Part shown: piece after piece, positions 10,839-55,785 of the stretch
Layout: each line of letters opens with the position of its first letter
How positions within the stretch are numbered: position 1 is the stretch's first letter
Assembly: GCF_016809835.1 (NCBI RefSeq)
Contig: NZ_JAFBIL020000007.1
Coordinates: 62,001-126,000 of the forward strand
Reading direction: 5' to 3'
Length of the DNA stretch: 64,000 bases
DNA from: Massilia soli
GTDB taxonomy: Bacteria > Pseudomonadota > Gammaproteobacteria > Burkholderiales > Burkholderiaceae_D
The notes under the pieces: generated by a model
What the model was told of the DNA's origin: nothing
Databases searched by the model: none
The model's input: the letters and a program-made list of their open reading frames with translations, nothing else
Translations under genes and position numbers: made by a program

Positions 10839-12158
10839 CTAAACGTTGTCGCTGTCCGCAGATTCAATCTCCGGACCAAGCAGCAGCTGGGCCGCCTCGC
10901 TTGGCAGAGCTTCCACCGATTTGAGCCGCTTCGCCATCTGGCGGCTGCGGACCTCGGCGTTCTCGATATTCTTGGCCGCGCGCTCCAATGTCAGTTTGGT
11001 CGCGCTCAGTACATCGCCAAATTTTCCGAATTCCGTCTTCACCGCGCCGAGTACTTCCCACACCTCGGAGGATCGTTTTTCCAGCGCCAGGGTGCGGAAA
11101 CCCATCTGCAGGCTGTTCAGGATCGCGGCCAGGGTCGACGGGCCTGCGATCGACACGCGCAGCTTGCGCTGAAGGTCGTCGGCCAGGCCCGGCCGGCGCA
11201 TTACTTCGGCATACAGGCCTTCGGTGGGCAGGAACAGGATCGCAAAATCGGTGGTGTGCGGCGGCGAGACATACTTTTCGCAGATCGTCCTGGCCTCGTT
11301 GCGCACCGCTTTTTCCAGTTCCTTGCCGTACAGCGCGACACCGTCGGCGTCGGCGCGGTCGGCAGCGTCGACCAGGCGTTCGTACTGCTCCTTGGGGAAC
11401 TTGGCGTCGATCGGCAGCCACACAGGCGCGCCGCCGTCGGTCAGGCCGGGCAGCTTGATCGCGAATTCGACGCGCGCGTTGGTGCCCGCCACGGTCTCGA
11501 CGTTCTTCGCGTACTGGTCGACCGTCAGCACCTGCTCCAGCAGCATTTCAAGCTGGACCTCGCCCCAGGTGCCACGGGTCTTGACGTTGGTGAGCACGCG
11601 TTTCAGGTCGCCCACGCCCAGCGCCAGCTGCTGCATTTCGCCCAGGCCCTGGTGCACCCGCTCGAGCCGTTCCGACACCTGCCTGAACGATTCGGTCAGG
11701 CGCGTCTCGAGCGTGGCATGCAGCTTTTCGTCGACCGTCTTGCGCATCTCTTCGAGGCGGGTCGCGTTATCGGTCTGCAGGTCCTTGATTTTCGATTCCA
11801 GCGTCGCGCGTACTTCCATCATGCGCTGCGAGTGCGATTCGGTCAGCGTGGTCAGGGTGCGCTGGAGCGTGTCGGCGAAGCGCTTGAGGGCGACCGCCTG
11901 CTCTTCGCGCCCGCTGCTCGCCTGCAGCATGCTTTGCTGGCGCAGGCTGTCGAGCTGCTGGACGGTGGCGCCGTGGTACTGGGCCAGCGTGGCGCCCAGT
12001 TCCTGGCGCGTGGCCTGCGCGCTGGCCTGTAGTTCGCCGCGCAGTTCGCGCTCCATGCGCTCGGAATCGCGCCCGCGCCCGCGCAGGAGCATTAACACCT
12101 GCAGCGCGATGACGATGGCGGCAAGGGCGGCCAGTACCAGGAATTCAAGTTGGGTCAT
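10839..12158 (-). CDS. rmuC: DNA recombination protein RmuC
   Basis: A 439-residue RmuC. One N-terminal membrane anchor (about residues 5-27) is followed by a long coiled coil rich in Gln, Glu and Arg (about 30-185). The RmuC nuclease-like domain comes next, recognisable by NVKTRGTWGEVQLEMLLEQ, the LPIDAKFP segment and FLPTEGLYAEV. RmuC limits inversions at short inverted repeats in E. coli; the biochemical activity is thought to be nucleolytic. The start is 4 bp after the truncated haemoglobin stop, so it belongs to the same transcription unit. Confidence 0.95.
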   Translation of the reverse strand: MTQLEFLVLAALAAIVIALQVLMLLRGRGRDSERMERELRGELQASAQATRQELGATLAQYHGATVQQLDSLRQQSMLQASSGREEQAVALKRFADTLQRTLTTLTESHSQRMMEVRATLESKIKDLQTDNATRLEEMRKTVDEKLHATLETRLTESFRQVSERLERVHQGLGEMQQLALGVGDLKRVLTNVKTRGTWGEVQLEMLLEQVLTVDQYAKNVETVAGTNARVEFAIKLPGLTDGGAPVWLPIDAKFPKEQYERLVDAADRADADGVALYGKELEKAVRNEARTICEKYVSPPHTTDFAILFLPTEGLYAEVMRRPGLADDLQRKLRVSIAGPSTLAAILNSLQMGFRTLALEKRSSEVWEVLGAVKTEFGKFGDVLSATKLTLERAAKNIENAEVRSRQMAKRLKSVEALPSEAAQLLLGPEIESADSDNV

Positions 12159-12162
12159 CGCG

Positions 12163-12552
12163 TCAGCCGGCCTTGTTGCGCATCCAGTCGGCGGTCTGGA
12201 AGAATGATTCCATCAGCCGCAGCCGCAACGATTCCTCGATGCCGACATCTTCCATCGCCCACGCCATCGCGCGCAGCCACTGGTCACGCTCGCTTGACCC
12301 GATGGCGAACGGCAGGTGGCGCGCGCGCAGGCGCGGATGGCCGTACTTTTCGACGAACAGGTCGGGCCCGCCCATCCAGCCGGACAGGAACATGAACAGC
12401 TTGTCGCGCGAGCTGTCGTTCGGCTTCGGGTGGAGCGCATGGATGCCCGCGAATTCCGGCTCCAGCTCCATCAGGTCGTAAAACCGGTCGACCAGTTCGC
12501 GAACGCGCGCCTCGCCGCCAATCACTTCATACAGGGTAGTAGGTTCACTCAT
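12163..12552 (-). CDS. Group II truncated haemoglobin
   Basis: A 129-residue 2/2 globin of group II (GlbO-like). It shows the proximal histidine in RARHLPF (H79), the YGHPRLRARH segment typical of the group, and a tryptophan-rich helix G (WLRAMAWAM). Members bind O2 or NO at haem and may work in oxygen or nitrosative chemistry. I chose the ATG at 12552, which gives the normal N-terminus; an upstream in-frame start at 12576 would add eight unsupported residues. The start overlaps the end of the hydroxylase-like gene by 8 bp, which favours translational coupling, and rmuC follows after 4 bp. Confidence 0.92.
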   Translation of the reverse strand: MSEPTTLYEVIGGEARVRELVDRFYDLMELEPEFAGIHALHPKPNDSSRDKLFMFLSGWMGGPDLFVEKYGHPRLRARHLPFAIGSSERDQWLRAMAWAMEDVGIEESLRLRLMESFFQTADWMRNKAG

Positions 12553-13312
12553 GTGCGCCATGATAGCGCAGCGCAACCGGCTCGTCTTCCTTGCGCTGCA
12601 TGGCGGCCTCGTATTCAGGCATGTTGGTACCCATCCAGCGGTCCCACAGGTTGAAGTACAACATGAAGTGGCCCTTGGAGCGGGCGTGGTGCAGGTTGTG
12701 GTGGGTGCTGGTGATGAACCAGCGCGCGACGCCAGGGCTGTAGAACTCGTAGCCGAGGTGGCTGATCACGTTCAGCACCGTGAGGATGACGATATAGGCG
12801 GCGACGGCGACCGGGTGGACCGGCAGCACGAAGGCCAGCGGCGCATACCACGCCACTTCAACCACCGCTTCGAGCGGGTGGAACGCGTAGCTGGCAAACG
12901 GCGTCGGGTTGGTGAAGGTATGGTGCAGCTTGTGCACATGGCGGAACACCTTCGGGTGGTGCATCAGGCGGTGCGCCCAGTAGTAGTAGGTGTCGTGGAC
13001 CACCGCCATGACCGCGACCGATACCGCGAGGTAGGTCCAGCCGTATTGGTCAACCTCGAAATAGCCGAGGCTCCATCCCGCTTGCGCGGTCAGCCAGGTG
13101 ATCGTCAGCAGCGACGACAGGATCAGGATCGACAGCACCGACCAGGCGATTTCGCGCCCGACCTGCGCCGGCCGCGGGTACTTCTGGATGCGCTGCGCCG
13201 CGTAGCGCTCGCGCCCCACGCTCCAGACCAGCAGGTAGGCGCCGCCCGCGCACAGCGCGTAGACGGCGAGGAAGAACAGGGAGATTGCGGCGAACAGGAA
13301 CAAGGTGGACAT
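12545..13312 (-). CDS. Sterol desaturase/fatty acid hydroxylase family membrane protein
   Basis: A 255-residue integral membrane di-iron oxygenase of the fatty acid hydroxylase superfamily. Hydrophobic segments lie near 5-32, 58-78 and 95-105. The histidine clusters are complete: H106 and H114 (HDTYYYWAH), H118/H119, H125, H128 and H130/H131 (HVHKLHH), and H204/H205 with H208/H209 (THHNLHH). Such enzymes use O2 to hydroxylate or desaturate lipids. The ATG at 13312 has GGAG 8 nt upstream and is preferred over an in-frame GTG at 13321. It lies 42 bp downstream of jqsA on the same strand and overlaps the haemoglobin gene. Its substrate is unknown; a link to the autoinducer is speculative. Confidence 0.9.
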   Translation of the reverse strand: MSTLFLFAAISLFFLAVYALCAGGAYLLVWSVGRERYAAQRIQKYPRPAQVGREIAWSVLSILILSSLLTITWLTAQAGWSLGYFEVDQYGWTYLAVSVAVMAVVHDTYYYWAHRLMHHPKVFRHVHKLHHTFTNPTPFASYAFHPLEAVVEVAWYAPLAFVLPVHPVAVAAYIVILTVLNVISHLGYEFYSPGVARWFITSTHHNLHHARSKGHFMLYFNLWDRWMGTNMPEYEAAMQRKEDEPVALRYHGAHE

Positions 13313-13354
13313 TTTGGACACTCCTATCGGTGTTTTTATGGTGTGCTGCGGCGT

Positions 13355-14599
13355 TCAGACCAGGGTCAGGCGGCGCGACCGGCGCGTGGACGACCAGCTA
13401 TCGAGGTCGACTTCCTTGCGCATGTCGTCGCAGGCGTCGAGCAGGCGGCTGATCTGCTGCGCGGTCATGCCCGAGTTCAGGGTCAGGCGAACCAGCGAGC
13501 GGTTCTTCGCGGTGGCCGGGGCGCAGAACACCGCGCCATACACGCCGCGCCGCTCCAGCGCCTTGCGCAGCGCCAGCGTCTTCGGCTCGGGCCCGGCTTC
13601 CAGCGCGACGATCTGCTCGGTCCCGTCGTCGACGTTGTAGCCAAGTTCGCGCAGGCCTGCGCGCACCTGGCGGGCATGCGCGTGCAGCGCGGCGCGGCGC
13701 TGGTCGGCATCGCCGATCAGGTCGAGCGCCGCGTCGAACCATGCCAGCTCGTGTTCCAGCAGGCAGGAACTGAAGATCGCCGGGCGCGAGGCCGACAGGA
13801 AGTAGCCCTTGAACTTGCTGGAACAGGTGATGTAGCCGGCGCGGCCGGCGAAGGCCTTGGCCAGCGAGGCGGTGCGGAAGTGCACATCGTCTTCCAGGCC
13901 CATCTCGGCCACGATGCCGGCGCCGCGCGGCCCGTGCGTGCCGAGCGAGTGCGATTCGTCGACGATCAGGATCGATCCGCTGCGCTGGGCGATGTCGACG
14001 ATCTCATGCAGCGGCGCGACGCTGCCGTTGGTGCTGTACAGCGCGTCGACGACGATCACGCCGCCGCCATGCTTGTCGACCTGGCGCGCGAGGTTGCCGG
14101 CGTCGTTATGCAAAAACGGCACCCCTTCCGCACGCGCCGACTGCACCCCTTCCCACAGCGAGGCGTGCGCCAGCATGTCGAGGTAAACCGGCACCCCCGG
14201 TTCGGCCAGCGTCTGGATCAGCCCGACATTGGCCGCCCAGCCGGACTGGGTCAGCACGCCGTCCTCGGCGCCCATGAACTGGGCAAACCTGGCTTCCAGC
14301 GCATGCTGGCGGCTGCCTTCCTGCAGGAAGACGGACGACATCAGCAGGCCAGCCTGGCTCGATTGCAGGCAGCGTGCCTGCGCGGCCAGCAAGGATTGCT
14401 CCGAAGAGATGCACAGGTAGTCATTCCCGGCGAGCATGATGGCGGCCGCGTCGGCAGGCTTCCAGACATGCAAGTGTTCCCCGCCCAGCAGCTGCTGGAC
14501 GCGGGTCACGTAATGCTCATCCATACGGCGGGTGACGAACGGCGGGAGGCAGTGCTCGGCACTGACAAACAGGCGTTGCTGGCGGGCGGCGAAGGTCAT
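13355..14599 (-). CDS. jqsA: Alpha-hydroxyketone autoinducer synthase (CqsA/LqsA/JqsA type)
   Basis: A 414-residue PLP enzyme of the alpha-oxoamine synthase family. It resembles Vibrio CqsA, Legionella LqsA and the JqsA of Janthinobacterium, which make alpha-hydroxyketone signals from acyl-CoA and an amino acid or SAM. Visible features are GNDYLCIS near 58, the DESHSLG motif (D214, H217), and the PLP lysine K248 in TASLAKAF. I chose the ATG at 14599 because AGGAG lies 5 nt upstream; an in-frame start at 14626 lacks this. A biotin-type KAPA synthase is less likely, because no bio genes are near while a matching kinase and regulator are divergently encoded. Confidence 0.88.
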   Translation of the reverse strand: MTFAARQQRLFVSAEHCLPPFVTRRMDEHYVTRVQQLLGGEHLHVWKPADAAAIMLAGNDYLCISSEQSLLAAQARCLQSSQAGLLMSSVFLQEGSRQHALEARFAQFMGAEDGVLTQSGWAANVGLIQTLAEPGVPVYLDMLAHASLWEGVQSARAEGVPFLHNDAGNLARQVDKHGGGVIVVDALYSTNGSVAPLHEIVDIAQRSGSILIVDESHSLGTHGPRGAGIVAEMGLEDDVHFRTASLAKAFAGRAGYITCSSKFKGYFLSASRPAIFSSCLLEHELAWFDAALDLIGDADQRRAALHAHARQVRAGLRELGYNVDDGTEQIVALEAGPEPKTLALRKALERRGVYGAVFCAPATAKNRSLVRLTLNSGMTAQQISRLLDACDDMRKEVDLDSWSSTRRSRRLTLV

Positions 14600-14641
14600 G
14601 ATTTCTCCTCTGTAAAAGGAGTTCATTGTGTGCGTGCATTG

Positions 14642-14747
14642 CTCAACAATTCAGCAGCGGCGCGCAACGTTGAGGCAAATCAAGTGCCCGATAGCAAAGG
14701 TACGACAAGATCGGGGTTGAGAATTATCAATTTGCGTTAGCTCAACC
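14642..14747. promoter_or_regulatory. Divergent jqsA/jqsS promoter region with four CTCAAC/GTTGAG hexamers
   Basis: The 184-bp spacer between the divergent synthase and kinase genes contains CTCAAC at 14642-14647, GTTGAG at 14669-14674, GTTGAG at 14716-14721 and CTCAAC at 14741-14746. The last two extend to a 7-bp inverted repeat, GGTTGAG/CTCAACC. Paired arms separated by 19-21 bp suggest a regulator binding site, but no protein can be named and chance is not excluded. Confidence 0.4.
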
Positions 14748-14783
14748 GTAAATGGATGCTGCGCGTAACAATGGACGATTTAC

Positions 14784-16094
14784 ATGGCGCAATGGACGGA
14801 CAAGGTCAAGGCGGCGGCCAGCAAGCGGCAGCAGACAATGCTGCTGTGGCTGGTGCGTCAGGATCGCCAGTACAGCCACGCATCGACCCGTTTCATGATG
14901 CTGGCCTGGGTCGGCTGCATCGCACTGCCGCTGTACTACGCGGTCTGGACCTGGTGGTTCCCGCAGGAGTTCGAAAGCTTGCCGCTGCGGCTGCTTGGTG
15001 CTGCGCTGTGCCTGCCCGCCGTCTGGTCGCGCGAACCGTTCCCGCCCAAGGTGATGCCTGCGTACATCTTCCTCAGCGTCACCTATGTGCTGCCGTTCTT
15101 CTTCACCTTCATGTACCTGATGAACCACGGCGCCGCGGTGTGGACCCAGTCGCTGCTGATCGGGCTGATCGTGCTGTTCCACTTCCATACCCTGTGGGCG
15201 CTGTGCTCCTACCTGGCCGGCACCGCCCTCGCCTGCCTGGCGTTTGCGCTGGTCGATGATCCGGCCTTCCTGCTCAGCCCAGCGGTGCTCGAGCAGTTGC
15301 CGCTGTACGGCTTCACGATGCTGGTGGTGTCGATCGCCAAGATCGGGCGCCGCGTGCTGGCCCAAGAGAAGCTCGCTGGCATGGCGCACGGGCTGGCGGC
15401 GGTCTCGCACGAGCTGCGCACCCCCCTGGTGACGATCGACGCCAACGCGCGCGGCATCAACCGGCGGCTGGGCAAACCGGGCCTGCCCGGCGAGGCCGAC
15501 TGGCACGCGATGAGCGAAGCGATGGCGCGCATCCAGTTCGAGGTCCGCCACATGAACCATATGATCGACCTGTTCCTGCTGTCGGCCACGGCGGTCAACC
15601 AGCAGCTCGAAGCGAACGAGTACGTCTCGATGGCCGATGTGGTCGAATCGGTGATCCGCCGCTACCCTTTCGCCAGCAATTCGCAGCGCACGGCGGTCAG
15701 CATCGACCTGCGCGCCGACTTCAGCTTCGCCGGCCGCTACGAGCTGTCGGTTGTGATCGTCCTCAACCTGCTGCGGAACTCGCTCAAGGCGCTGCACCGG
15801 GCCGGCAAGGGACGCATCCGGATCATCGTGGACGGCGCCCGCCAGACCCCGCGCCTGCTGTTCATCGACACCGGCTGCGGCATCGCGCCATCGCAGCTGC
15901 CGCTGGTGTTCGATCGCTTCTACTCCTATCCGCCAAGCTCCGGATCGGGCATCGGGCTGGCCCTGTGCAAGGAGATCATGGGCGCATGGAACGCCAACAT
16001 CCGGCTCACCTCGCGCGAAAACGGCTACACCATGTTCGTGCTCGAATTCCCCCGCATCCACCTGGCCGAATCCGCCTCCGCGCTGGCCGCCTAA
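14784..16094 (+). CDS. jqsS: Membrane sensor histidine kinase of the JQS (CqsS/LqsS-like) system
   Basis: A 436-residue sensor kinase. The first 185 residues hold about six hydrophobic helices with short loops and no periplasmic domain, the layout of CqsS/LqsS receptors for alpha-hydroxyketones. The cytoplasmic part has the H box with H209 in AAVSHELRTP, an N box in NLLRNSLKAL, and the ATP-binding DTGCGIA and GSGIGLAL motifs. Unlike CqsS there is no fused receiver domain, so the separate regulator encoded 16 bp downstream is the likely phosphate acceptor. It is divergent from jqsA. The receptor role is inferred from position and topology. Confidence 0.85.
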   Translation: MAQWTDKVKAAASKRQQTMLLWLVRQDRQYSHASTRFMMLAWVGCIALPLYYAVWTWWFPQEFESLPLRLLGAALCLPAVWSREPFPPKVMPAYIFLSVTYVLPFFFTFMYLMNHGAAVWTQSLLIGLIVLFHFHTLWALCSYLAGTALACLAFALVDDPAFLLSPAVLEQLPLYGFTMLVVSIAKIGRRVLAQEKLAGMAHGLAAVSHELRTPLVTIDANARGINRRLGKPGLPGEADWHAMSEAMARIQFEVRHMNHMIDLFLLSATAVNQQLEANEYVSMADVVESVIRRYPFASNSQRTAVSIDLRADFSFAGRYELSVVIVLNLLRNSLKALHRAGKGRIRIIVDGARQTPRLLFIDTGCGIAPSQLPLVFDRFYSYPPSSGSGIGLALCKEIMGAWNANIRLTSRENGYTMFVLEFPRIHLAESASALAA

Positions 16095-16110: not shown

Positions 16111-17109
16111 ATGTCCCTGCCCATCTACCACCATCCCAGCTTGACCGTCCTGATCGACGACAGCGACAACTTCCTGCGCAGCCTGTCCTTCCAGCTCGAC
16201 CCGACGCTCGCCAGCGTCGCCTTCCACAACACCAGCAGCGCACTGGCCTGGCTGTCGCGGCAGACCACTGAACTCGGCCAGGCCGAGGGGACGCTGAGCG
16301 CCAGCTACGACACCTACCCGCGCAAGATGGCCCAATGCAGCGTCGCGCTCGACCTCGAACAGATCCACCGCATCAGCTTCCAGGCCAAGCGCTTCATGAC
16401 GCCGTCGGTGCTGGTGGTCGATTACTCGATGCCGCAGATGAACGGCGTCGAACTGTGCGAAGCGGTGCGCCACCTGCCCTGCAAGAAGATCCTGTTCACC
16501 GGGGCGGCCGACGAAAAGGTCGCAGTCGACGCCTTCAACCGCGGGCTGATCGACCGCTACATCAAAAAGAGCGACGAGAACGCGCTGGACCGCCTCGAGG
16601 CCGAGATCTGCGCGCTGCAGCGCGAGTATTTTTCAGCGCGCTCGGAACCGCTGCGCGACCTGCTCGCGCTGCACAGCTACAGCTTCGTGGCCGATCCGGC
16701 GGTCGCCGCGCTGGTGCGCGACCTGGTGGCCGAGCACGGGATCGTCGAGCACTACCTGTACCCCAATCCGGCCGGGCTGCTGATGTACGACACCGACGGG
16801 CAGGCGATGCTGCTGGTGGTGGAGACCGAGGCGGGCATGAATGCCCACTACGAAATCGCCAGCGACAACGAGGCGCCGCCGTCGCTGCTCGAGGCGCTGC
16901 GCGAACGGCGGGTGATCCCCTACTTCCACGACGGCGATGGCATGTACACCGAGGCGTTTGCCAATGGCTGGCACAAGTACATCGAACCGGCGCAGGTGTG
17001 CCAGGGCGATCAGACGTATTTTTGGGCGCTGTTCAGGCTTGAGCCAGGGATGATCGCGGAGGAGACGTTTTCATACAACGAGTTTTTGCGGACCCACCAG
17101 GGACCGTAG
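16111..17109 (+). CDS. jqsR: Response regulator of the JQS (LqsR-like) system
   Basis: A 332-residue receiver protein without a recognisable DNA-binding domain. The acidic pair is D16/D17, the phosphoacceptor is D104 in LVVDYSMPQMNG, the threonine is T130 and the lysine K152. The phosphoacceptor is far later than the usual position near 55 because about 45-50 residues are inserted after the first half of the receiver; LqsR of Legionella shows the same late aspartate (D108). The region after about 170 matches no output domain that I can name. It starts 16 bp after the kinase and should be cotranscribed. Output may be by protein-protein contact. Confidence 0.85.
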   Translation: MSLPIYHHPSLTVLIDDSDNFLRSLSFQLDPTLASVAFHNTSSALAWLSRQTTELGQAEGTLSASYDTYPRKMAQCSVALDLEQIHRISFQAKRFMTPSVLVVDYSMPQMNGVELCEAVRHLPCKKILFTGAADEKVAVDAFNRGLIDRYIKKSDENALDRLEAEICALQREYFSARSEPLRDLLALHSYSFVADPAVAALVRDLVAEHGIVEHYLYPNPAGLLMYDTDGQAMLLVVETEAGMNAHYEIASDNEAPPSLLEALRERRVIPYFHDGDGMYTEAFANGWHKYIEPAQVCQGDQTYFWALFRLEPGMIAEETFSYNEFLRTHQGP

Positions 17110-17143: not shown

Positions 17144-19675
17144 TCAACCTTCGCGCAAGGTCTGCAACGGCGGCTGCCTGAGCACCATGCGCAGTCCCAG
17201 CCAGCCCCCGATAATCGCGCACAAGGCGCCAACCACCACGCCGGCCAGCCACACGGTCGGGCTGAAGGTCCATGGGAACTTGAACTGGTACGTCGCCAGT
17301 GCCCAGCCCAGCGCCGCCGCGCCAGTGGCCGCCAGCAGCCCTGCCAGGCCGCCGACCAGCGAGAACTCGATCCACTGCGCCTGCTGCAGCTGCTTTTTGG
17401 TGGCCCCCAGCGCGCGCAGCAGGCCGGCTTCGCGGGTGCGTTCATCTTGCGATCCCATCAGCGCCGCATACAGCACCAGCACCCCTGAAGCCAGCGTGAA
17501 CATGAACAGGAACTCCACCGCGACCACCACCTGGTCGACCACTTCCTGCACCTGGCGGATGATGCCGCTGACATCGATCACGGTCAGGTTCGGAAACTCG
17601 CGCGACAGCGAATTGCCCAGCTGAGCGCCGTCGCCCGGCAGGTGGAAGGCCGTCATGTAGGTCTGCGACGCCGATTCCATCGCCGCCGGATTGATGATGA
17701 CGAAGAAGTTAGCCCGCATCGAGCCCCATTCCAGCTTGCGCAGGCTGGTGACCTTGGCGTCGACATCGAGCCCGCCGATATTGAAGCGCAGGACGTCGCC
17801 CAGCTTGAGGCGCAGCGTCTTGGCGATGCCCTGCTCGACCGACGCCTCGGCCACGCCGGGTGCGTCGGTAAACCATTTGCCCGCCACGATCTCGTTCGTT
17901 TCCGGCATGTCCTTCATCGTCGACAGGTTGAACTCGCGGTCGGACATGCGGCGCGCGCCGTCGGTCTCGTAGGTATCCTTGGTGATCGGCTGGCCGTTGA
18001 CGGTGGTCAGGCGGCCGCGGATCATCGGGTACAGCGTCACCTCCTTGACGCCGGCGCCGCGCAGGCGCTGTTCGATCTGCGGCTTCTGGTCGTCCTGGAT
18101 GTTGATCACGAAGCGGTTAGGCGCGTCCGGCGGCGTGGCGCTGCGCCAGGCTTGCGTCAGGTCGCCGCGCACCACCGTCAGGATCAGCAGCGCCATCAGG
18201 CCAAGCGCCAGCGAGACCACCTGCACGATGGTGGCGCCGGGACGGCGCTGCAGCGACGTCACCGCAAAACGCCAGCTCTGGTTGTCGACTGCGCCGCGCA
18301 GGCGCCGCAGCGACTTCAGGCCCAGCCAGGCCACCAGGGCGAACAAGGCGAAGCCTCCGAGGAAGCCGGCCGCGGTCAGCAGCGCCAGTTTGACGTCGCC
18401 GGCCTGCCACTGCAGCAGGCCGATGAACACGCAGACGCCGAAGCCGTACGTGGCCAGGGCCATCGGCTTCGGCGCGGCCTGTTCGCGGCGGATCACGCGG
18501 TTGTGCGGCACGTTGCGCAGCTGGAGCACCGGCGGCAGCGCGAACCCGACCAGCAGCAGCATGCCGGTGGCGACGCCCTGGAACGCGGGCAGCAGCGAGA
18601 CCGGCGGCAGGTCGGCGGCGACCAGCTGGCCGAGCAGTTCGAGCAGGATGTAATGGGCGCCGAAGCCAACCAGCACGCCCACCAGGCTGCCCGCCAGGCC
18701 GACCAGGGTAAATTCGATCAGGTAGAGCGCGGTGACCTGGTTTTGGGTCAGGCCGAGGCAGCGCAGCATGGCGCAGGCGTCGAGGTGGCGCAGCATGAAG
18801 CGGCGCGCGGCCATCGCCACCGCCACCGCGGCCAGCATCGCCGACAGCAGGCCGACCAGCGACAGGAAGCGGTCGGCGCGGTCGAGGGTGGCGTTCATCT
18901 CGGGACGGCCACTTTCGAGCGACTCGATGCGCACGCCCTTCACCTGGCCGGCCGTGATCTGCTCCTTGAGCCAGGCTTCGTAATCGGAGACGCGCGCCAT
19001 GTCGTTGTTCGATGGCGCCGCCACCTGCATGCGGTAGGTCACGCGCGAGCCGAGACCGGCCAGGCCAGTTGCCTCCAGATCGTCGAGCGACATCATCACG
19101 CGCGGGGCGAAATTGACGAACGCGGCGCCGCGGTCGGGTTCGGCGGCGATCAGCTGGGTGATCGTGAAGCGCTTGTCGCCCACCGTGATGGCGCTGCCGA
19201 CCGAGGTGCTCAGCGCCGTAAGGATTTGCGGATCGACCCAGACGGTGCCCGGCGCGGGCGTGTCGTCCGTGCGCTCGCCCAGCGCCTCGCCAGCTTGCGC
19301 CGGGTCGCGCGTGATCTTGACCGCGCCGCGCAGCGGATAACCCTTGGAGACCGCCTTGATCGACGACAGCTGCGCCAGCGATGCTTCGCCCTCGCCGGCC
19401 TGCGCCATGCTCGGAAATACCACGGTGTCGGCCAGCACCAGCCCGCGCCGCTCGGCTTCGCGGCGCCATTCCGGCCTGACCGGCTGGTCGGCGCCGACCA
19501 GCAGGTCGGCACCGAGCAGCTGGTGGGCGTCGCGGTTCAGGCCCGTGCGCATGCGGTCGATGAAGAAGCCGACCGCCGACAGCGCCGAGACGGCGACGAT
19601 CAGGGCAATCAGCAGGAAGCGCAGCTCACCGGCGCGCCAGTCGCGCGCGGTCATGCGCAGGGATTGGATCAGCAT
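17144..19675 (-). CDS. FtsX-like ABC transporter permease (YbbP family)
   Basis: An 843-residue permease with two FtsX-type domains. The N-terminal anchor (residues 20-40) is followed by a large extracytoplasmic MacB-like region, then three helices with the conserved FLSLVGLLSAMLAAVAV start near 255, further central helices, a second extracytoplasmic region, and a C-terminal block of three helices. YbbA-YbbP systems are thought to move lipophilic molecules or lipoproteins. I chose ATG 19675 (MLIQSLRMTARDW); longer in-frame readings run into the neighbouring deaminase gene. No ATPase gene is adjacent, although YbbA homologues usually are. The deaminase stop is 5 bp upstream, so the two genes form one unit. 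Confidence 0.88.
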   Translation of the reverse strand: MLIQSLRMTARDWRAGELRFLLIALIVAVSALSAVGFFIDRMRTGLNRDAHQLLGADLLVGADQPVRPEWRREAERRGLVLADTVVFPSMAQAGEGEASLAQLSSIKAVSKGYPLRGAVKITRDPAQAGEALGERTDDTPAPGTVWVDPQILTALSTSVGSAITVGDKRFTITQLIAAEPDRGAAFVNFAPRVMMSLDDLEATGLAGLGSRVTYRMQVAAPSNNDMARVSDYEAWLKEQITAGQVKGVRIESLESGRPEMNATLDRADRFLSLVGLLSAMLAAVAVAMAARRFMLRHLDACAMLRCLGLTQNQVTALYLIEFTLVGLAGSLVGVLVGFGAHYILLELLGQLVAADLPPVSLLPAFQGVATGMLLLVGFALPPVLQLRNVPHNRVIRREQAAPKPMALATYGFGVCVFIGLLQWQAGDVKLALLTAAGFLGGFALFALVAWLGLKSLRRLRGAVDNQSWRFAVTSLQRRPGATIVQVVSLALGLMALLILTVVRGDLTQAWRSATPPDAPNRFVINIQDDQKPQIEQRLRGAGVKEVTLYPMIRGRLTTVNGQPITKDTYETDGARRMSDREFNLSTMKDMPETNEIVAGKWFTDAPGVAEASVEQGIAKTLRLKLGDVLRFNIGGLDVDAKVTSLRKLEWGSMRANFFVIINPAAMESASQTYMTAFHLPGDGAQLGNSLSREFPNLTVIDVSGIIRQVQEVVDQVVVAVEFLFMFTLASGVLVLYAALMGSQDERTREAGLLRALGATKKQLQQAQWIEFSLVGGLAGLLAATGAAALGWALATYQFKFPWTFSPTVWLAGVVVGALCAIIGGWLGLRMVLRQPPLQTLREG

Positions 19676-53259: not shown

Positions 53260-53955
53260 TTATTCAAGAAACCGCGTGAAGCCCGAGACCGGTTCGCGCT
53301 CGGTAATGAGTGAATTTTCAATCTTGCTACTGTCGGCAAAACCCAGCGCCATCCCGCATACCACCATCTCGTTGGCAGGCAAGTCCAGCTGATCAGCGAT
53401 GATGCGGTGGAACTGGGTAAATGCCGCTTGCGGACAGGTATCGAGACCGCGCCCGCGCGCGGCGATCATGATATTTTCCAGGAACATGCCGTAATCGAGC
53501 CAGGAACCCTGGTCCATCACACGGTCGATGGTAAACAGTAGACCAACTGGCGCGTCAAAAAATCGGTAGTTGCGCGCATGCTGTGCGGCCATCCCTGCTT
53601 TATTGTCGCGCGTCAAACCGAGCAGCGCGTACAGGTCCCAGCCCACCTTGCGGCGCCGGTCGATGAACGGGGAAATCCATTCGCGCGGATAGTAAGCGTA
53701 CTCTTCCGTGTGCTCCTTTGCCTGGGCCGGGTCGGCGTAGGCCGCCGTGATCGCATCGGACAAGCGCTGCTTTGCCTGCCCGGTGACGACGACCACCTTC
53801 CAGGGCTGGGTATTGGTGCCCGATGGGGCGCGCGACGCGACCTCAAGAATCTTCTCGATATCTTCCCGCGCCACCTCGGTCGGCAGAAATGCACGGATTG
53901 AACGGCGCGAGGTGATGGCGGCGTCGACGATTTCCTGTTGCTGGCTTGCGATCAT
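53260..53955 (-). CDS. Nitroreductase family flavoprotein
   Basis: A 231-residue FMN-dependent nitroreductase-like enzyme with TSRRSIRAFLPTEV at the N-terminus, APSGTNTQPWKVVVV near 47, and the C-terminal GMALGFAD. It would reduce nitroaromatics or quinones with NAD(P)H; the natural substrate is unknown. Its start overlaps the stop of the EamA transporter gene as ATGA, so both are translated from one mRNA. Confidence 0.92.
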   Translation of the reverse strand: MIASQQQEIVDAAITSRRSIRAFLPTEVAREDIEKILEVASRAPSGTNTQPWKVVVVTGQAKQRLSDAITAAYADPAQAKEHTEEYAYYPREWISPFIDRRRKVGWDLYALLGLTRDNKAGMAAQHARNYRFFDAPVGLLFTIDRVMDQGSWLDYGMFLENIMIAARGRGLDTCPQAAFTQFHRIIADQLDLPANEMVVCGMALGFADSSKIENSLITEREPVSGFTRFLE

Positions 53956-54866
53956 GATTTCTCCTGTTTTCTAACAACCAATGCGACACCGGCGACGGCG
54001 ACCAGCATGCCGGCCACGCCGGCCAGGCTGAGCGACTCGCCGAAGACCAGCCACGCCATGATGGCGGTGGTGGGCGGGGTCAGGTACATCAGGCTGGTGA
54101 CCGACGTGGCCGCGCTGCGCCGGATTAACTTGAACAGCAGGAACGTGGCGCCGATCGACAGCACCACGCCGGACCACAGCAGCGCACCGATGAATTCGCC
54201 GGTCCATTCTACTGTGGCAAAGCCCGGATCGAGCCCCTCGAACAGCCATGCCAGCGGCAGAATAAGCGCCAACGAGGCGCTAAACTGGACCGCGGTGCCA
54301 GTGCGCAAGTCAAATTGCGGGCAGAAATGGCGCTGGTACATCGTGCCCGTGGTGATGGACAACAGTGCGAACAGGGTCAGCGCGATCGGCAGTGCAGACA
54401 ATCCGGTCAGGTTCATCTTTGAATACACCACCAGCGCCACGCCTGCCAGCCCAAGCAGCAGCCCGACCCACTGGATCCGCCTGACCTTCTCGCCGATCAG
54501 CGGCGCCGCGGCCGCTGTCAGGATCGGCTGCATGCCGACGATCAGCGCCGTTACCCCGGCAGGCATGCCCAGCTTGATCGCGCACCACACGCCACCGATG
54601 TAACCGGCCTGCAACAGCAGGCCGGCGACTGCCAGGTGCATGATGCTGCCGGTCGGCCACGGCGCCCGGACCAGCAGCACCCACGGCAGCAGGACGGCCA
54701 GCACCAGCGCGCAGCGCAAGACGATAAAGGTCAGCGGCGGCGCATACGGGAGGCCGAACTTGGCCACGATGAAGCCGGTGCTCCACAAGAAAACAAACAA
54801 GATCGGGATCGGCGACAGCCACGACGAGTGACGCGATGCAACATTTGCAGCAGTTTCGTTTGACAT
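53952..54866 (-). CDS. EamA/DMT-family transporter 2
   Basis: A 304-residue transporter with ten hydrophobic segments and two EamA repeats (WSTGFIVAKFGLPYAPPL near 30 and a second from about 155). It is a paralogue of the protein at 39465-40367 but not close in sequence. It is cotranscribed with the nitroreductase, so export of a nitro- or aromatic compound is possible but speculative. Confidence 0.9.
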   Translation of the reverse strand: MSNETAANVASRHSSWLSPIPILFVFLWSTGFIVAKFGLPYAPPLTFIVLRCALVLAVLLPWVLLVRAPWPTGSIMHLAVAGLLLQAGYIGGVWCAIKLGMPAGVTALIVGMQPILTAAAAPLIGEKVRRIQWVGLLLGLAGVALVVYSKMNLTGLSALPIALTLFALLSITTGTMYQRHFCPQFDLRTGTAVQFSASLALILPLAWLFEGLDPGFATVEWTGEFIGALLWSGVVLSIGATFLLFKLIRRSAATSVTSLMYLTPPTTAIMAWLVFGESLSLAGVAGMLVAVAGVALVVRKQEKS

Positions 54867-55215
54867 AGATCAATAAGCGCTCAAGCGCGGCTAAACGTTG
54901 CGGTGCGCTCGCATAATATGTCCGCTGCGCAAAAAATCAGTCTAACATGGGCGGGTCAGGGGCGTAGCGGCCCGGTCAATCCTCACAGATAATCACCATG
55001 GCGACGGTAAACATTCTTATGAGAAACGATATCCGGAAAATCGCGTGAAATTAAATGGTGCACCGCACAATCATCGCTTGACTTGCGGTTCAATTTCATT
55101 AAAATAGGACTTTGTTGCGCTGCACAACGCGGCCAAGATATCGAGATTCCTGCTTCACCGGTAGTTTGGCAACATTGACTAAATAAAACGTTATCAATAC
55201 ATCTGGAGAATAAAT
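54867..55215. promoter_or_regulatory. Promoter region of the phasin gene
   Basis: A 349-bp region with no gene that I can support. Its right half is AT-rich. It holds a good sigma-70-like promoter at 55078-55105 and TTGACT at 55174-55179. GGAG lies before the phasin ATG. The left part probably contains the promoter of the EamA transporter 2 unit. Confidence 0.55.
55078..55105 (+). promoter_or_regulatory. Predicted promoter of the phasin gene
   Basis: TTGACT (55078-55083) and TAAAAT (55100-55105) are spaced by 16 bp. Transcription would begin near 55112 and leave about 100 nt of leader. A PhaR operator cannot be identified with confidence. Confidence 0.6.
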
Positions 55216-55785
55216 ATGTTTGCATTCCCTGAACAAATTTCGAACGCCACCAAAGCCAACATGGAAGCCCAGTTCGCGATGTTTTCGTCGCTGACCACCA
55301 AAGCTTTCGAAGGCATGGAAAAGCTGGTTGAACTGAACCTGACCGCGGCCAAAGCCACGCTGGAAGAGTCGTCGCAGACCGCCAAGCAGCTGATGAGCGC
55401 AAAGAACCCACAAGAATTCTTCACCCTGTCCGCAGCCCAGGCTCAGCCAACCGCTGAAAAGGCGATGTCGTACGGCCGCCAGGTTGCTGCCATCGCCACC
55501 GGCGCGCAGCAAGAGTTCACCCGCGCCGCTGAGGAACAGATCGCTGAAGGCGGCCGCAAGGTTCTGTCGCTGGTTGACGAAGTCACCAAAAACGCACCAG
55601 CCGGCACCGAAAACGCCGTTGCCGCGTTCAAGGCAGGCCTGACCAACGCCAGCGCCGGTTACGAGCAGTTCACCAAGACCGCCAAGCAAGCCGCCCAGGT
55701 CGTGGAAACCAACGTTACCGCAGCAGTGACCCAGTTCTCGCAAGCGGCTGAAAAAGCGACCGCACGCGCGACCGCCAAGGTGTAA
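55216..55785 (+). CDS. phaP: Phasin family protein
   Basis: A 189-residue helical, Ala/Lys/Glu-rich phasin. It starts [17 protein letters not shown] and contains the family core with [20 protein letters not shown] near 30-55. Phasins coat polyhydroxyalkanoate granules and control their size. No phaC, phaA, phaB or phaR gene is in the window. It has its own promoter and a strong terminator, as expected for an abundant protein. Confidence 0.93.

What the first reader, a model, noticed from the sequence alone, without database searches (positions are those of the whole stretch)
12163..14599. Autoinducer synthase packed with an oxygen-dependent hydroxylase-like protein and a truncated haemoglobin
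jqsA is followed after 42 bp by a complete di-iron fatty-acid-hydroxylase-family gene, which overlaps a group II truncated haemoglobin gene by 8 bp; rmuC follows at 4 bp. The sequence shows this packing directly. From family knowledge, JqsA-type enzymes make alpha-hydroxyketone signals with an alkyl tail, and fatty acid hydroxylases act on alkyl chains with O2, while group II globins bind O2 or NO. The inference is that the signal, or a membrane lipid needed for signalling, is modified in an oxygen-dependent way, giving a signal that reports both density and oxygen.
Basis: partly seen in the sequence, partly recalled or inferred. Interest (0 to 1): 0.8.

Follow-up and report, generated by a model that had tools for sequence, protein, structure and literature searches.

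The report
Quorum-signal locus with inserted hydroxylase gene
The neighbouring genes are real, but the haemoglobin gene is an older neighbour, the hydroxylase is a recent addition seen in three related species, and the likeliest link to oxygen is a regulatory DNA site that looks the same as a known low-oxygen switch.

Summary
The coordinates are right: jqsA, a complete di-iron hydroxylase (FAH), a truncated haemoglobin (trHb) and rmuC lie in one direction, spaced 42, -8 and 4 bp, divergent from jqsS-jqsR. The inference from packing mostly fails. FAH sits behind jqsA in 2 of 39 evaluable loci plus the window and in 3 of 75 jqsA genomes; they form one clade, so one gain fits best. trHb-rmuC is adjacent in 23 of 23 loci without jqsA, and the jqs cassette lies between a permease gene and trHb. 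trHb has a conserved TAT[CG]AT before its start in 71 of 71 upstreams; FAH's last codons read through it, which explains the overlap. FAH is intact and under purifying selection, behind a promoter with two 'JAI-1 motifs'. New point: that motif matches the FNR 'anaerobox', found before ccoN in 30 of 30 genomes tested and in perfect form in 10 of 10 g48 loci that lost jqsA. A promoter-spacing test at jqsA did not fit ccoN geometry. An oxygen link is thus possible, more likely through a regulator than through the hydroxylase.

The parts
13355..14599 (-). jqsA, alpha-hydroxyketone autoinducer synthase (414 aa)
   Evidence: NF005526 552.3 bits, cut-off 428; CqsA structures best, E about 3e-104
12545..13312 (-). 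FAH, membrane di-iron fatty-acid-hydroxylase-family protein (255 aa); single-clade addition; last codons LRYHGAHE read through the trHb upstream element
   Evidence: (PF04116)
12163..12552 (-). truncated haemoglobin (129 aa), older neighbour of rmuC
   Evidence: (PF01152)
12560..12565 (-). TATCAT, conserved -10-like element before the globin gene, inside the FAH 3' end; no -35 partner found by the sigma-70 scan
   Evidence: TAT[CG]AT within 45 nt in 71 of 71 distinct trHb upstreams
10839..12158 (-). rmuC (439 aa)
   Evidence: PF02646
14784..16094 (+). jqsS, sensor histidine kinase (436 aa)
   Evidence: naming after PMC3566124
16111..17109 (+). jqsR, LqsR-type response regulator without a recognised DNA-binding domain (332 aa)
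   Evidence: 6sy9, E 2e-78; LqsR structure 6sy9 ranks first
14670..14683 (.). JAI-1 motif / near-anaerobox TTGAGGCAAATCAA, the one nearer jqsA
14717..14730 (.). JAI-1 motif / near-anaerobox TTGAGAATTATCAA, the one nearer jqsS; a sigma-70-like match in jqsA's direction (14752-14723) overlaps it
17144..19675 (-). ABC-permease-like gene (named by eye from its sequence), the other flank of the jqs cassette; directly precedes trHb in jqs-less genomes
   Evidence: start and stop codons

Best explanation
This is an ordinary JQS (Lqs/Cqs-type) quorum-sensing cassette, jqsR-jqsS divergent from jqsA, placed between an ABC-permease-like gene and the older trHb-rmuC pair. In one three-species Massilia clade a membrane di-iron hydroxylase gene was added between jqsA and trHb. 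It has its own SD-like sequence and lies behind the jqsA promoter region, which carries two JAI-1 motifs, so it is most likely read from the jqsA transcript and rises with the signal (inferred). It most likely hydroxylates an acyl chain of a cell lipid, or less likely the JqsA product (inferred). The globin is probably read mainly from its own promoter-like element within FAH's last codons and serves its own function (element shown, function inferred). Any oxygen input to signalling more likely enters at the jqsA-jqsS boxes, which resemble FNR sites (sequence match shown, binding not shown).
For: Gene order in 39 evaluable genome loci: jqsA-trHb direct 23, FAH between 2, a 1.1-2.3 kb gap between 10, no trHb 4. 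Of 11 loci with no jqs gene, 9 show permease-trHb-rmuC; one ends at a contig edge and one has a different upstream gene. trHb-rmuC adjacent in 70 of 70 loci with jqsA (not deduplicated by genome) and 23 of 23 without it, of which 12 keep jqsR or jqsR-jqsS. TAT[CG]AT in 71 of 71 distinct trHb upstreams, mononucleotide-shuffle rate 0.006. FAH clade monophyletic 100/100, next to FAH-less L006. FAH dN/dS 0.085-0.20, near jqsA (0.08-0.12) and jqsR (0.15-0.18), GC3 like its neighbours. Nine invariant His. JAI-1 motif in 46 of 60 distinct jqsS-jqsA intergenics, 73 hits against 0.21 in mononucleotide shuffles; PMC5080296 reports it before jqsA, vioA and chiA of its strains (section 18).
Against: I saw no transcript data for these three species, so co-transcription of jqsA and FAH is inferred. 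The sigma-70 scan found no full promoter at trHb; its two promoter-like hits (0.5 expected) are at 14752-14723 in jqsA's direction and at 13315-13342 on the strand opposite FAH. No substrate evidence for FAH: no PDB sequence match, OlsE similarity far below cut-off (22.8 of 475 bits), structure prediction failed (pLDDT 44.9). Gain rather than repeated loss of FAH rests on one gene tree. In the window alone the motif count is only mildly unusual (3 found, 0.5 expected, 2 of 100 shuffles reach 3). trHb could also be reached by read-through from jqsA where the two are adjacent.
Confidence: 0.62

Rival explanations
1. FAH tailors the autoinducer: JqsA makes an amino- or hydroxyketone with an alkyl tail, and FAH hydroxylates it with O2, much as a SUR2-type hydroxylase acts on the product of serine palmitoyltransferase, a relative of JqsA (SUR2 analogy recalled).
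For: FAH is directly behind jqsA and under purifying selection. JqsA aligns with serine palmitoyltransferases as well as CqsA. Six of the eight family genomes with a 36-39% FAH homologue elsewhere also carry jqsA over cut-off, all in genus g48.
Against: FAH at 88% or more is in 3 of 75 jqsA genomes, and the 36-39% homologues are not near jqsA within their 1.5-kb flanks. JqsS of the FAH clade sits on no unusually long branch. Another lineage has different genes in the same slot. JAI-1 structure was unknown in PMC3566124 (passages).
Confidence: 0.2
2. Oxygen or NO control enters through an FNR-type regulator at the jqsA-jqsS boxes; the published JAI-1 motif is an anaerobox.
For: TTGAN6TCAA against TTGAT-N4-ATCAA (PMC7888657, passages). 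Half-site base 5 is T in 91 of 142 half-sites at jqs and 49 of 62 at ccoN. ccoN carries the box in 30 of 30 genomes, 21 in perfect form, including two g14 (Janthinobacterium-like) genomes. In 10 of 10 g48 loci without jqsA the box beside jqsS or jqsR is a perfect anaerobox. Fnr over cut-off in the own genome beside cco and hemN. Fnr-family hit at E<=1e-40 in 72 of 75 jqsA genomes (counted by eye from the printed rows). JqsR has no known DNA-binding domain. In PMC5080296 a 49-bp deletion with the motif cut vioA promoter activity 75-90%, loss of jqsA only two-fold.
Against: At ccoN a -10-like hexamer recurs 22 nt after the box (7 of 29, shuffle maximum 5); at jqsA it does not (1 of 49), the peak being at 39 nt (13 of 49, shuffle maximum 6). 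Only 29 of 77 jqs boxes (15 of 45 unique) are perfect anaeroboxes; those in the window each have one mismatch. The 14 of 60 intergenics without the box include 12 from g36, where 10 of 13 jqsA genomes have an Fnr hit.
Confidence: 0.4
3. FAH is unrelated cargo that merely landed there and is read from its own promoter; neither the signal nor oxygen is involved.
For: Other genes occupy the same slot in Janthinobacterium (L022 and L041 read). FAH homologues elsewhere lie beside various genes: AraC regulator, sulfotransferase, ketoacyl synthase, FMO, acyltransferase.
Against: No promoter-like site in FAH's direction was found in the 42-bp gap. The SD-like GGAG before FAH and the jqsA-FAH orientation are kept in all three species.
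Confidence: 0.25

Closest known systems
JQS system of Janthinobacterium/Duganella HH01 and HH102 (PMC3566124, PMC5080296)
   Same: jqsA with jqsS and jqsR; JAI-1 motif before jqsA
   Different: The jqsA-FAH-trHb neighbourhood is not described in either main text: 'globin' 0 in both; 'hydroxylase' 0 in PMC3566124 and 2 in PMC5080296, both VioD table rows (matched anywhere in a word)
Legionella Lqs system
   Same: AHK synthase family, LqsR-type regulator (6sy9)
   Different: There hdeD lies between convergent lqsS and lqsR (PMC3376566, passages); the NO link described there is between LvbR and the receptor Hnox1 (PMC11237717, abstract)
FNR/FixK anaerobox regulation
   Same: TTGAT-N4-ATCAA-like sites (PMC7888657, passages), and Fnr beside cco-hemN in the same genome
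   Different: FNR binding at jqsA not shown; -10 spacing differs from ccoN
Sterol-desaturase / FA-hydroxylase superfamily (PF04116)
   Same: profile match and complete His clusters
   Different: no characterised close relative found; the best homologue outside the clade is 44% identical, in another context

Membership tests
AHK autoinducer synthase (CqsA/LqsA/JqsA) | NCBIfam equivalog NF005526 above cut-off | tested here: met
   552.3 bits against 428
AHK autoinducer synthase (CqsA/LqsA/JqsA) | product is an alpha-hydroxy or alpha-amino ketone | not testable with these tools
   JAI-1 structure not determined in PMC3566124
JQS/Lqs locus | synthase adjacent to sensor kinase and LqsR-type regulator | tested here: met
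FA hydroxylase superfamily PF04116 | profile match above gathering cut-off | tested here: met
   93 bits against 31
FA hydroxylase superfamily PF04116 | HX3H, HX2HH, HX2HH histidine clusters | tested here: met
   9 His invariant in 32 of 32 rows; the cluster pattern is recalled
Ornithine-lipid hydroxylase OlsE | NCBIfam NF052566 above cut-off | tested here: not met
   22.8 bits against 475
jqsA-FAH-trHb functional module | conserved adjacency across JQS genomes | tested here: not met
   FAH in 2 of 39 loci plus the window; trHb-rmuC independent of jqsA
FNR anaerobox site | TTGAT-N4-ATCAA | tested here: inconclusive
   perfect in 29 of 77 jqs boxes, window boxes one mismatch each; perfect in 10 of 10 jqsA-less g48 loci
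FNR-activated promoter | -10 at the ccoN-like spacing after the box | tested here: not met
   1 of 49 at 22 nt
FNR anaerobox site | FNR binds and regulates in response to O2 | not testable with these tools
   needs binding and reporter assays
Truncated haemoglobin | PF01152 match above gathering cut-off | tested here: met
   135.2 bits against 21; group II not tested

The most novel reading that the evidence does not exclude
The quorum-sensing 'JAI-1 motif' of Oxalobacteraceae is an FNR-type anaerobox: the alpha-hydroxyketone circuit is gated by oxygen or NO through a CRP/FNR-family regulator, so part of the published JAI-1 regulon would be a low-oxygen regulon, and in the Massilia clade an O2-consuming hydroxylase is read from that gated promoter.
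Probability: 0.4. Interest if true: 0.75.

Novelty: new variant of a known kind. Interest (0 to 1): 0.5.

Why it matters
It separates an attractive but weak reading (a gene pack that makes an oxygen-modified signal) from a testable one (an oxygen-type site at a quorum-sensing promoter). If the JAI-1 motif is an anaerobox, published QS effects on violacein and antifungal activity would have to be re-read with oxygen as a confounder or co-signal. The receiver-only loci give a natural test of eavesdropping in this signal family.

Tried and rejected
Globin as part of the QS operon: rejected. 8-bp overlap as evidence of coupling: explained by FAH reading into the trHb upstream element. Loss of Fnr as the reason for box loss in g36: not supported, 10 of 13 jqsA-bearing g36 genomes have an Fnr hit. 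FAH structure: AF2 with 3 sequences failed, no fold search made with it. FAH in PDB by sequence: none. FAH on plasmids: 109 records, all below 60% identity. One search read only four of the intended loci and was repeated.

Literature, all ten searches: 0 papers for alpha-hydroxyketone + quorum sensing + fatty acid hydroxylase; 3 papers hold jqsA and JAI-1; 0 for cqsA + truncated hemoglobin; 0 for Herbaspirillum seropedicae + Fnr + TTGAT; 0 for quorum sensing + FNR + anaerobox; 5 for Janthinobacterium + FNR + quorum sensing, listing only, none opened. 'FNR' does not occur in the main texts of the three papers. So the anaerobox reading was not found in these searches; more is not claimed. Supplements were not readable, so Table S5 of PMC5080296 was not seen.

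Rows dropped or limited: L017 and L028 left out of the 39-locus count because they end at or inside jqsA. L043 (genes matching in pieces) is in the gene-order tally and, not in the box statistics. Identical intergenics counted once. The box count is 73, 77 and 71 because locus sets and identity cut-offs differ; one search used a hand list of 45 loci. Of the 57 trHb upstreams, 41 had TATCAT in the last 25 nt; the rest have TATGAT or a start assigned further in. ccoN: the 30 best of 37 genomes over cut-off, out of 60 searched; one search gave 29 of 30 because its fixed cut took coding sequence for contig-edge L218, whose true upstream has a perfect box. g48: 10 of the 11 sampled genomes without jqsA were read (not G189). 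Shuffles keep single-base content only. The JqsS tree used best tblastn segments of at least 330 aligned residues, X at any stop; L153, L028 and L043 not included.
Full report
Observation. The four genes lie as described. On the minus strand, jqsA is 14599-13355, FAH 13312-12545, trHb 12552-12163 and rmuC 12158-10839, with gaps of 42, -8 and 4 bp. jqsS (14784-16094) and jqsR (16111-17109) are divergent on the plus strand. JqsA passes the NCBIfam equivalog for alpha-hydroxyketone synthases (552.3 against 428 bits), and its best solved relatives are CqsA structures. FAH matches PF04116 and trHb PF01152. Nine FAH histidines are invariant in 32 of 32 aligned rows.

Gene order in relatives. The search for related loci gave 41 jqsA loci; 39 have sequence past jqsA. 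Of these, trHb follows jqsA directly in 23, FAH lies between in 2 (L004 Massilia agrisoli, L005 M. polaris), a gap of 1.1-2.3 kb lies between in 10, all titled Janthinobacterium, and no trHb is seen in 4. In L022 the gap holds a MarR-like gene (by eye), a 115-aa gene without a Pfam match and an MFS gene, on the opposite strand. In 294 family genomes, 75 carry NF005526 over cut-off. FAH at 88% identity or more occurs in 3, the own genome included; 175 of 294 have some superfamily member at E<=0.001. The next best are eight homologues of 36-39% with no jqs gene in their 1.5-kb flanks; six of their genomes, all g48, also have jqsA. On the JqsS tree of 60 rows the FAH clade is monophyletic (100/100) and grouped with FAH-less L006, so one gain fits best.

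The globin. Of 11 trHb loci with no jqs gene, 9 show permease-trHb-rmuC; L074 ends at a contig edge and L096 has another upstream gene. trHb-rmuC adjacency holds in 70 of 70 loci with jqsA (not deduplicated) and 23 of 23 without it, of which 12 keep jqsR or jqsR-jqsS. trHb homologues occur in 262 of 294 genomes. All 71 distinct trHb upstreams carry TAT[CG]AT within 45 nt of the assigned start (shuffle rate 0.006). In the window this element is 12560-12565, inside FAH's last codons (LRYHGAHE). Most FAH homologues have no residue there: a gap at residue 251 in 24 of 32 aligned rows. The 8-bp overlap is therefore best read as FAH running into an older start region. That the element is a near-leaderless promoter is inference; the sigma-70 scan found no -35 partner.

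Is FAH functional? Its dN/dS between the three species is 0.085-0.20, close to jqsA and jqsR, with GC3 like its neighbours. A GGAG lies 8 nt before its ATG in all three species. No terminator-like site was found between jqsA and FAH; the only one in 12000-14900 is at 14605-14621 on the plus strand, near the jqsA start. Its substrate is unknown: no PDB sequence match, OlsE far below cut-off, structure prediction failed. Homologues elsewhere lie beside an AraC regulator, a sulfotransferase and ketoacyl synthase, an FMO or an acyltransferase, and in g48 beside a beta-eliminating-lyase-family enzyme. The lipid reading is a judgement from the family, not a result.

The promoter. PMC5080296 (section 18 read in full, other passages) describes a palindrome TTGAN6/7TCAA, the JAI-1 motif, before JAI-1-regulated genes and before jqsA. 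The window has two such sites between jqsA and jqsS and a third elsewhere (3 found, 0.5 expected). Across 60 distinct jqsS-jqsA intergenics, 46 carry it (73 hits against 0.21 in shuffles); the 14 without are 12 g36 loci, L106 (g45) and L040. PMC7888657 (passages) gives the anaerobox bound by FixK and FnrN as TTGAT-N4-ATCAA and fixNOQP as a target. Of 77 jqs boxes, 49 have T at position 5, 52 have A at position 10 and 29 have both. Before ccoN, 30 of 30 family genomes tested have TTGAN6TCAA and 21 the perfect form. In the own genome Fnr (NF008365, 265.5 against 228 bits) lies beside ccoNOP and hemN, with a perfect box before ccoN; that genome has 77 TTGAN6TCAA sites against 33 for the reversed pattern. 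PMC5080296 does not mention FNR or oxygen.

Results against the anaerobox reading. At ccoN a -10-like hexamer recurs 22 nt after the box (7 of 29; shuffle maximum 5). At jqsA it does not (1 of 49), and the peak lies at 39 nt (13 of 49; shuffle maximum 6). jqs boxes contain G at half-site base 5 in 27 of 142 half-sites, ccoN boxes in none of 62. The window's two boxes each have one mismatch. Ten of 13 jqsA-bearing g36 genomes have an Fnr hit, yet the g36 intergenics examined have no box. Sequence identity of the motif is shown; binding and oxygen control are not.

JqsR. Its profile matches 6sy9 over its length (E 2e-78), and its model (mean pLDDT 69) matches 6sy9, the LqsR structure, first. PMC3376566 (passages) says the LqsR C-terminus shows no homology to known output domains. 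So the protein that binds the JAI-1 motif is not known from these sources, and an FNR-family regulator is a fair candidate.

Receiver-only loci. Of 26 g48 genomes in the sample, 15 have jqsA over cut-off and 11 do not (counted by eye); I read 10 of the 11. Nine keep permease-jqsR-jqsS-trHb-rmuC without jqsA and one keeps jqsR only; two g12 loci also keep jqsR only. In L151 the jqsR and jqsS ORFs are short and may be broken. JqsS of the nine forms one clade (100/100) joined to jqsA-bearing rows by a fork of support 86/86, which suggests one loss of the synthase. A perfect anaerobox lies beside jqsS or jqsR in 10 of 10 of these g48 loci, and both g12 loci have boxes; an earlier cut of the same stretches had missed three. 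No jqs-less trHb upstream (0 of 11; 300 nt, 159 nt for L074) has the box, so it travels with the jqs genes rather than with trHb.

Verdict. The packing is real, but it is mostly history of position. The hydroxylase is a real, selected, lineage-specific addition behind a quorum-sensing promoter. The claim of an oxygen-modified signal is unproven. The most interesting testable point is that the quorum-sensing motif matches a low-oxygen regulatory box.

Noticed in passing
L147-L152, L154-L156 (g48); L153, L094, L097: Receiver-only JQS loci: jqsR-jqsS (or jqsR alone) kept at the permease-trHb junction with jqsA gone; nine JqsS form one clade near jqsA-bearing rows.
   Followed up: partly
window 14670-14683 and 14717-14730; 60 intergenics: JAI-1 motif matches the FNR anaerobox in sequence.
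   Followed up: partly
L022 7206-9525 and other Janthinobacterium loci; L041: The slot between jqsA and trHb holds other genes there: in L022 a MarR-like gene (by eye), a 115-aa gene and an MFS gene on the opposite strand; L041 has a 1.1-kb gap.
   Followed up: partly
L052, L053, L055, L058: FAH homologues (37-39%) lie next to a 361-aa PLP-type enzyme; the one in L053 was scanned and is beta-eliminating-lyase family, the others look alike by eye.
   Followed up: partly
L043 (Massilia sp. H-1, CP087969.1): jqsA, jqsS, jqsR and rmuC all match in pieces, so the frames look broken; this may be sequencing error.
   Followed up: no
window 54860-54873: A third TTGAN6TCAA site (TTGACATAGATCAA), overlapping the start of a transporter-like ORF (53952-54866, minus) and before an ORF at 55216.
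   Followed up: no
g36 loci L099-L101, L103-L105, L107-L110, L123, L125: JQS present without the JAI-1 motif and without trHb within the 1.5-kb flank; another binding site may be used.
   Followed up: no
G000:C2:24381-25433 and G000:C11:753896-754975: Two further JqsA-like sequences at 25-27% identity in the own genome.
   Followed up: no
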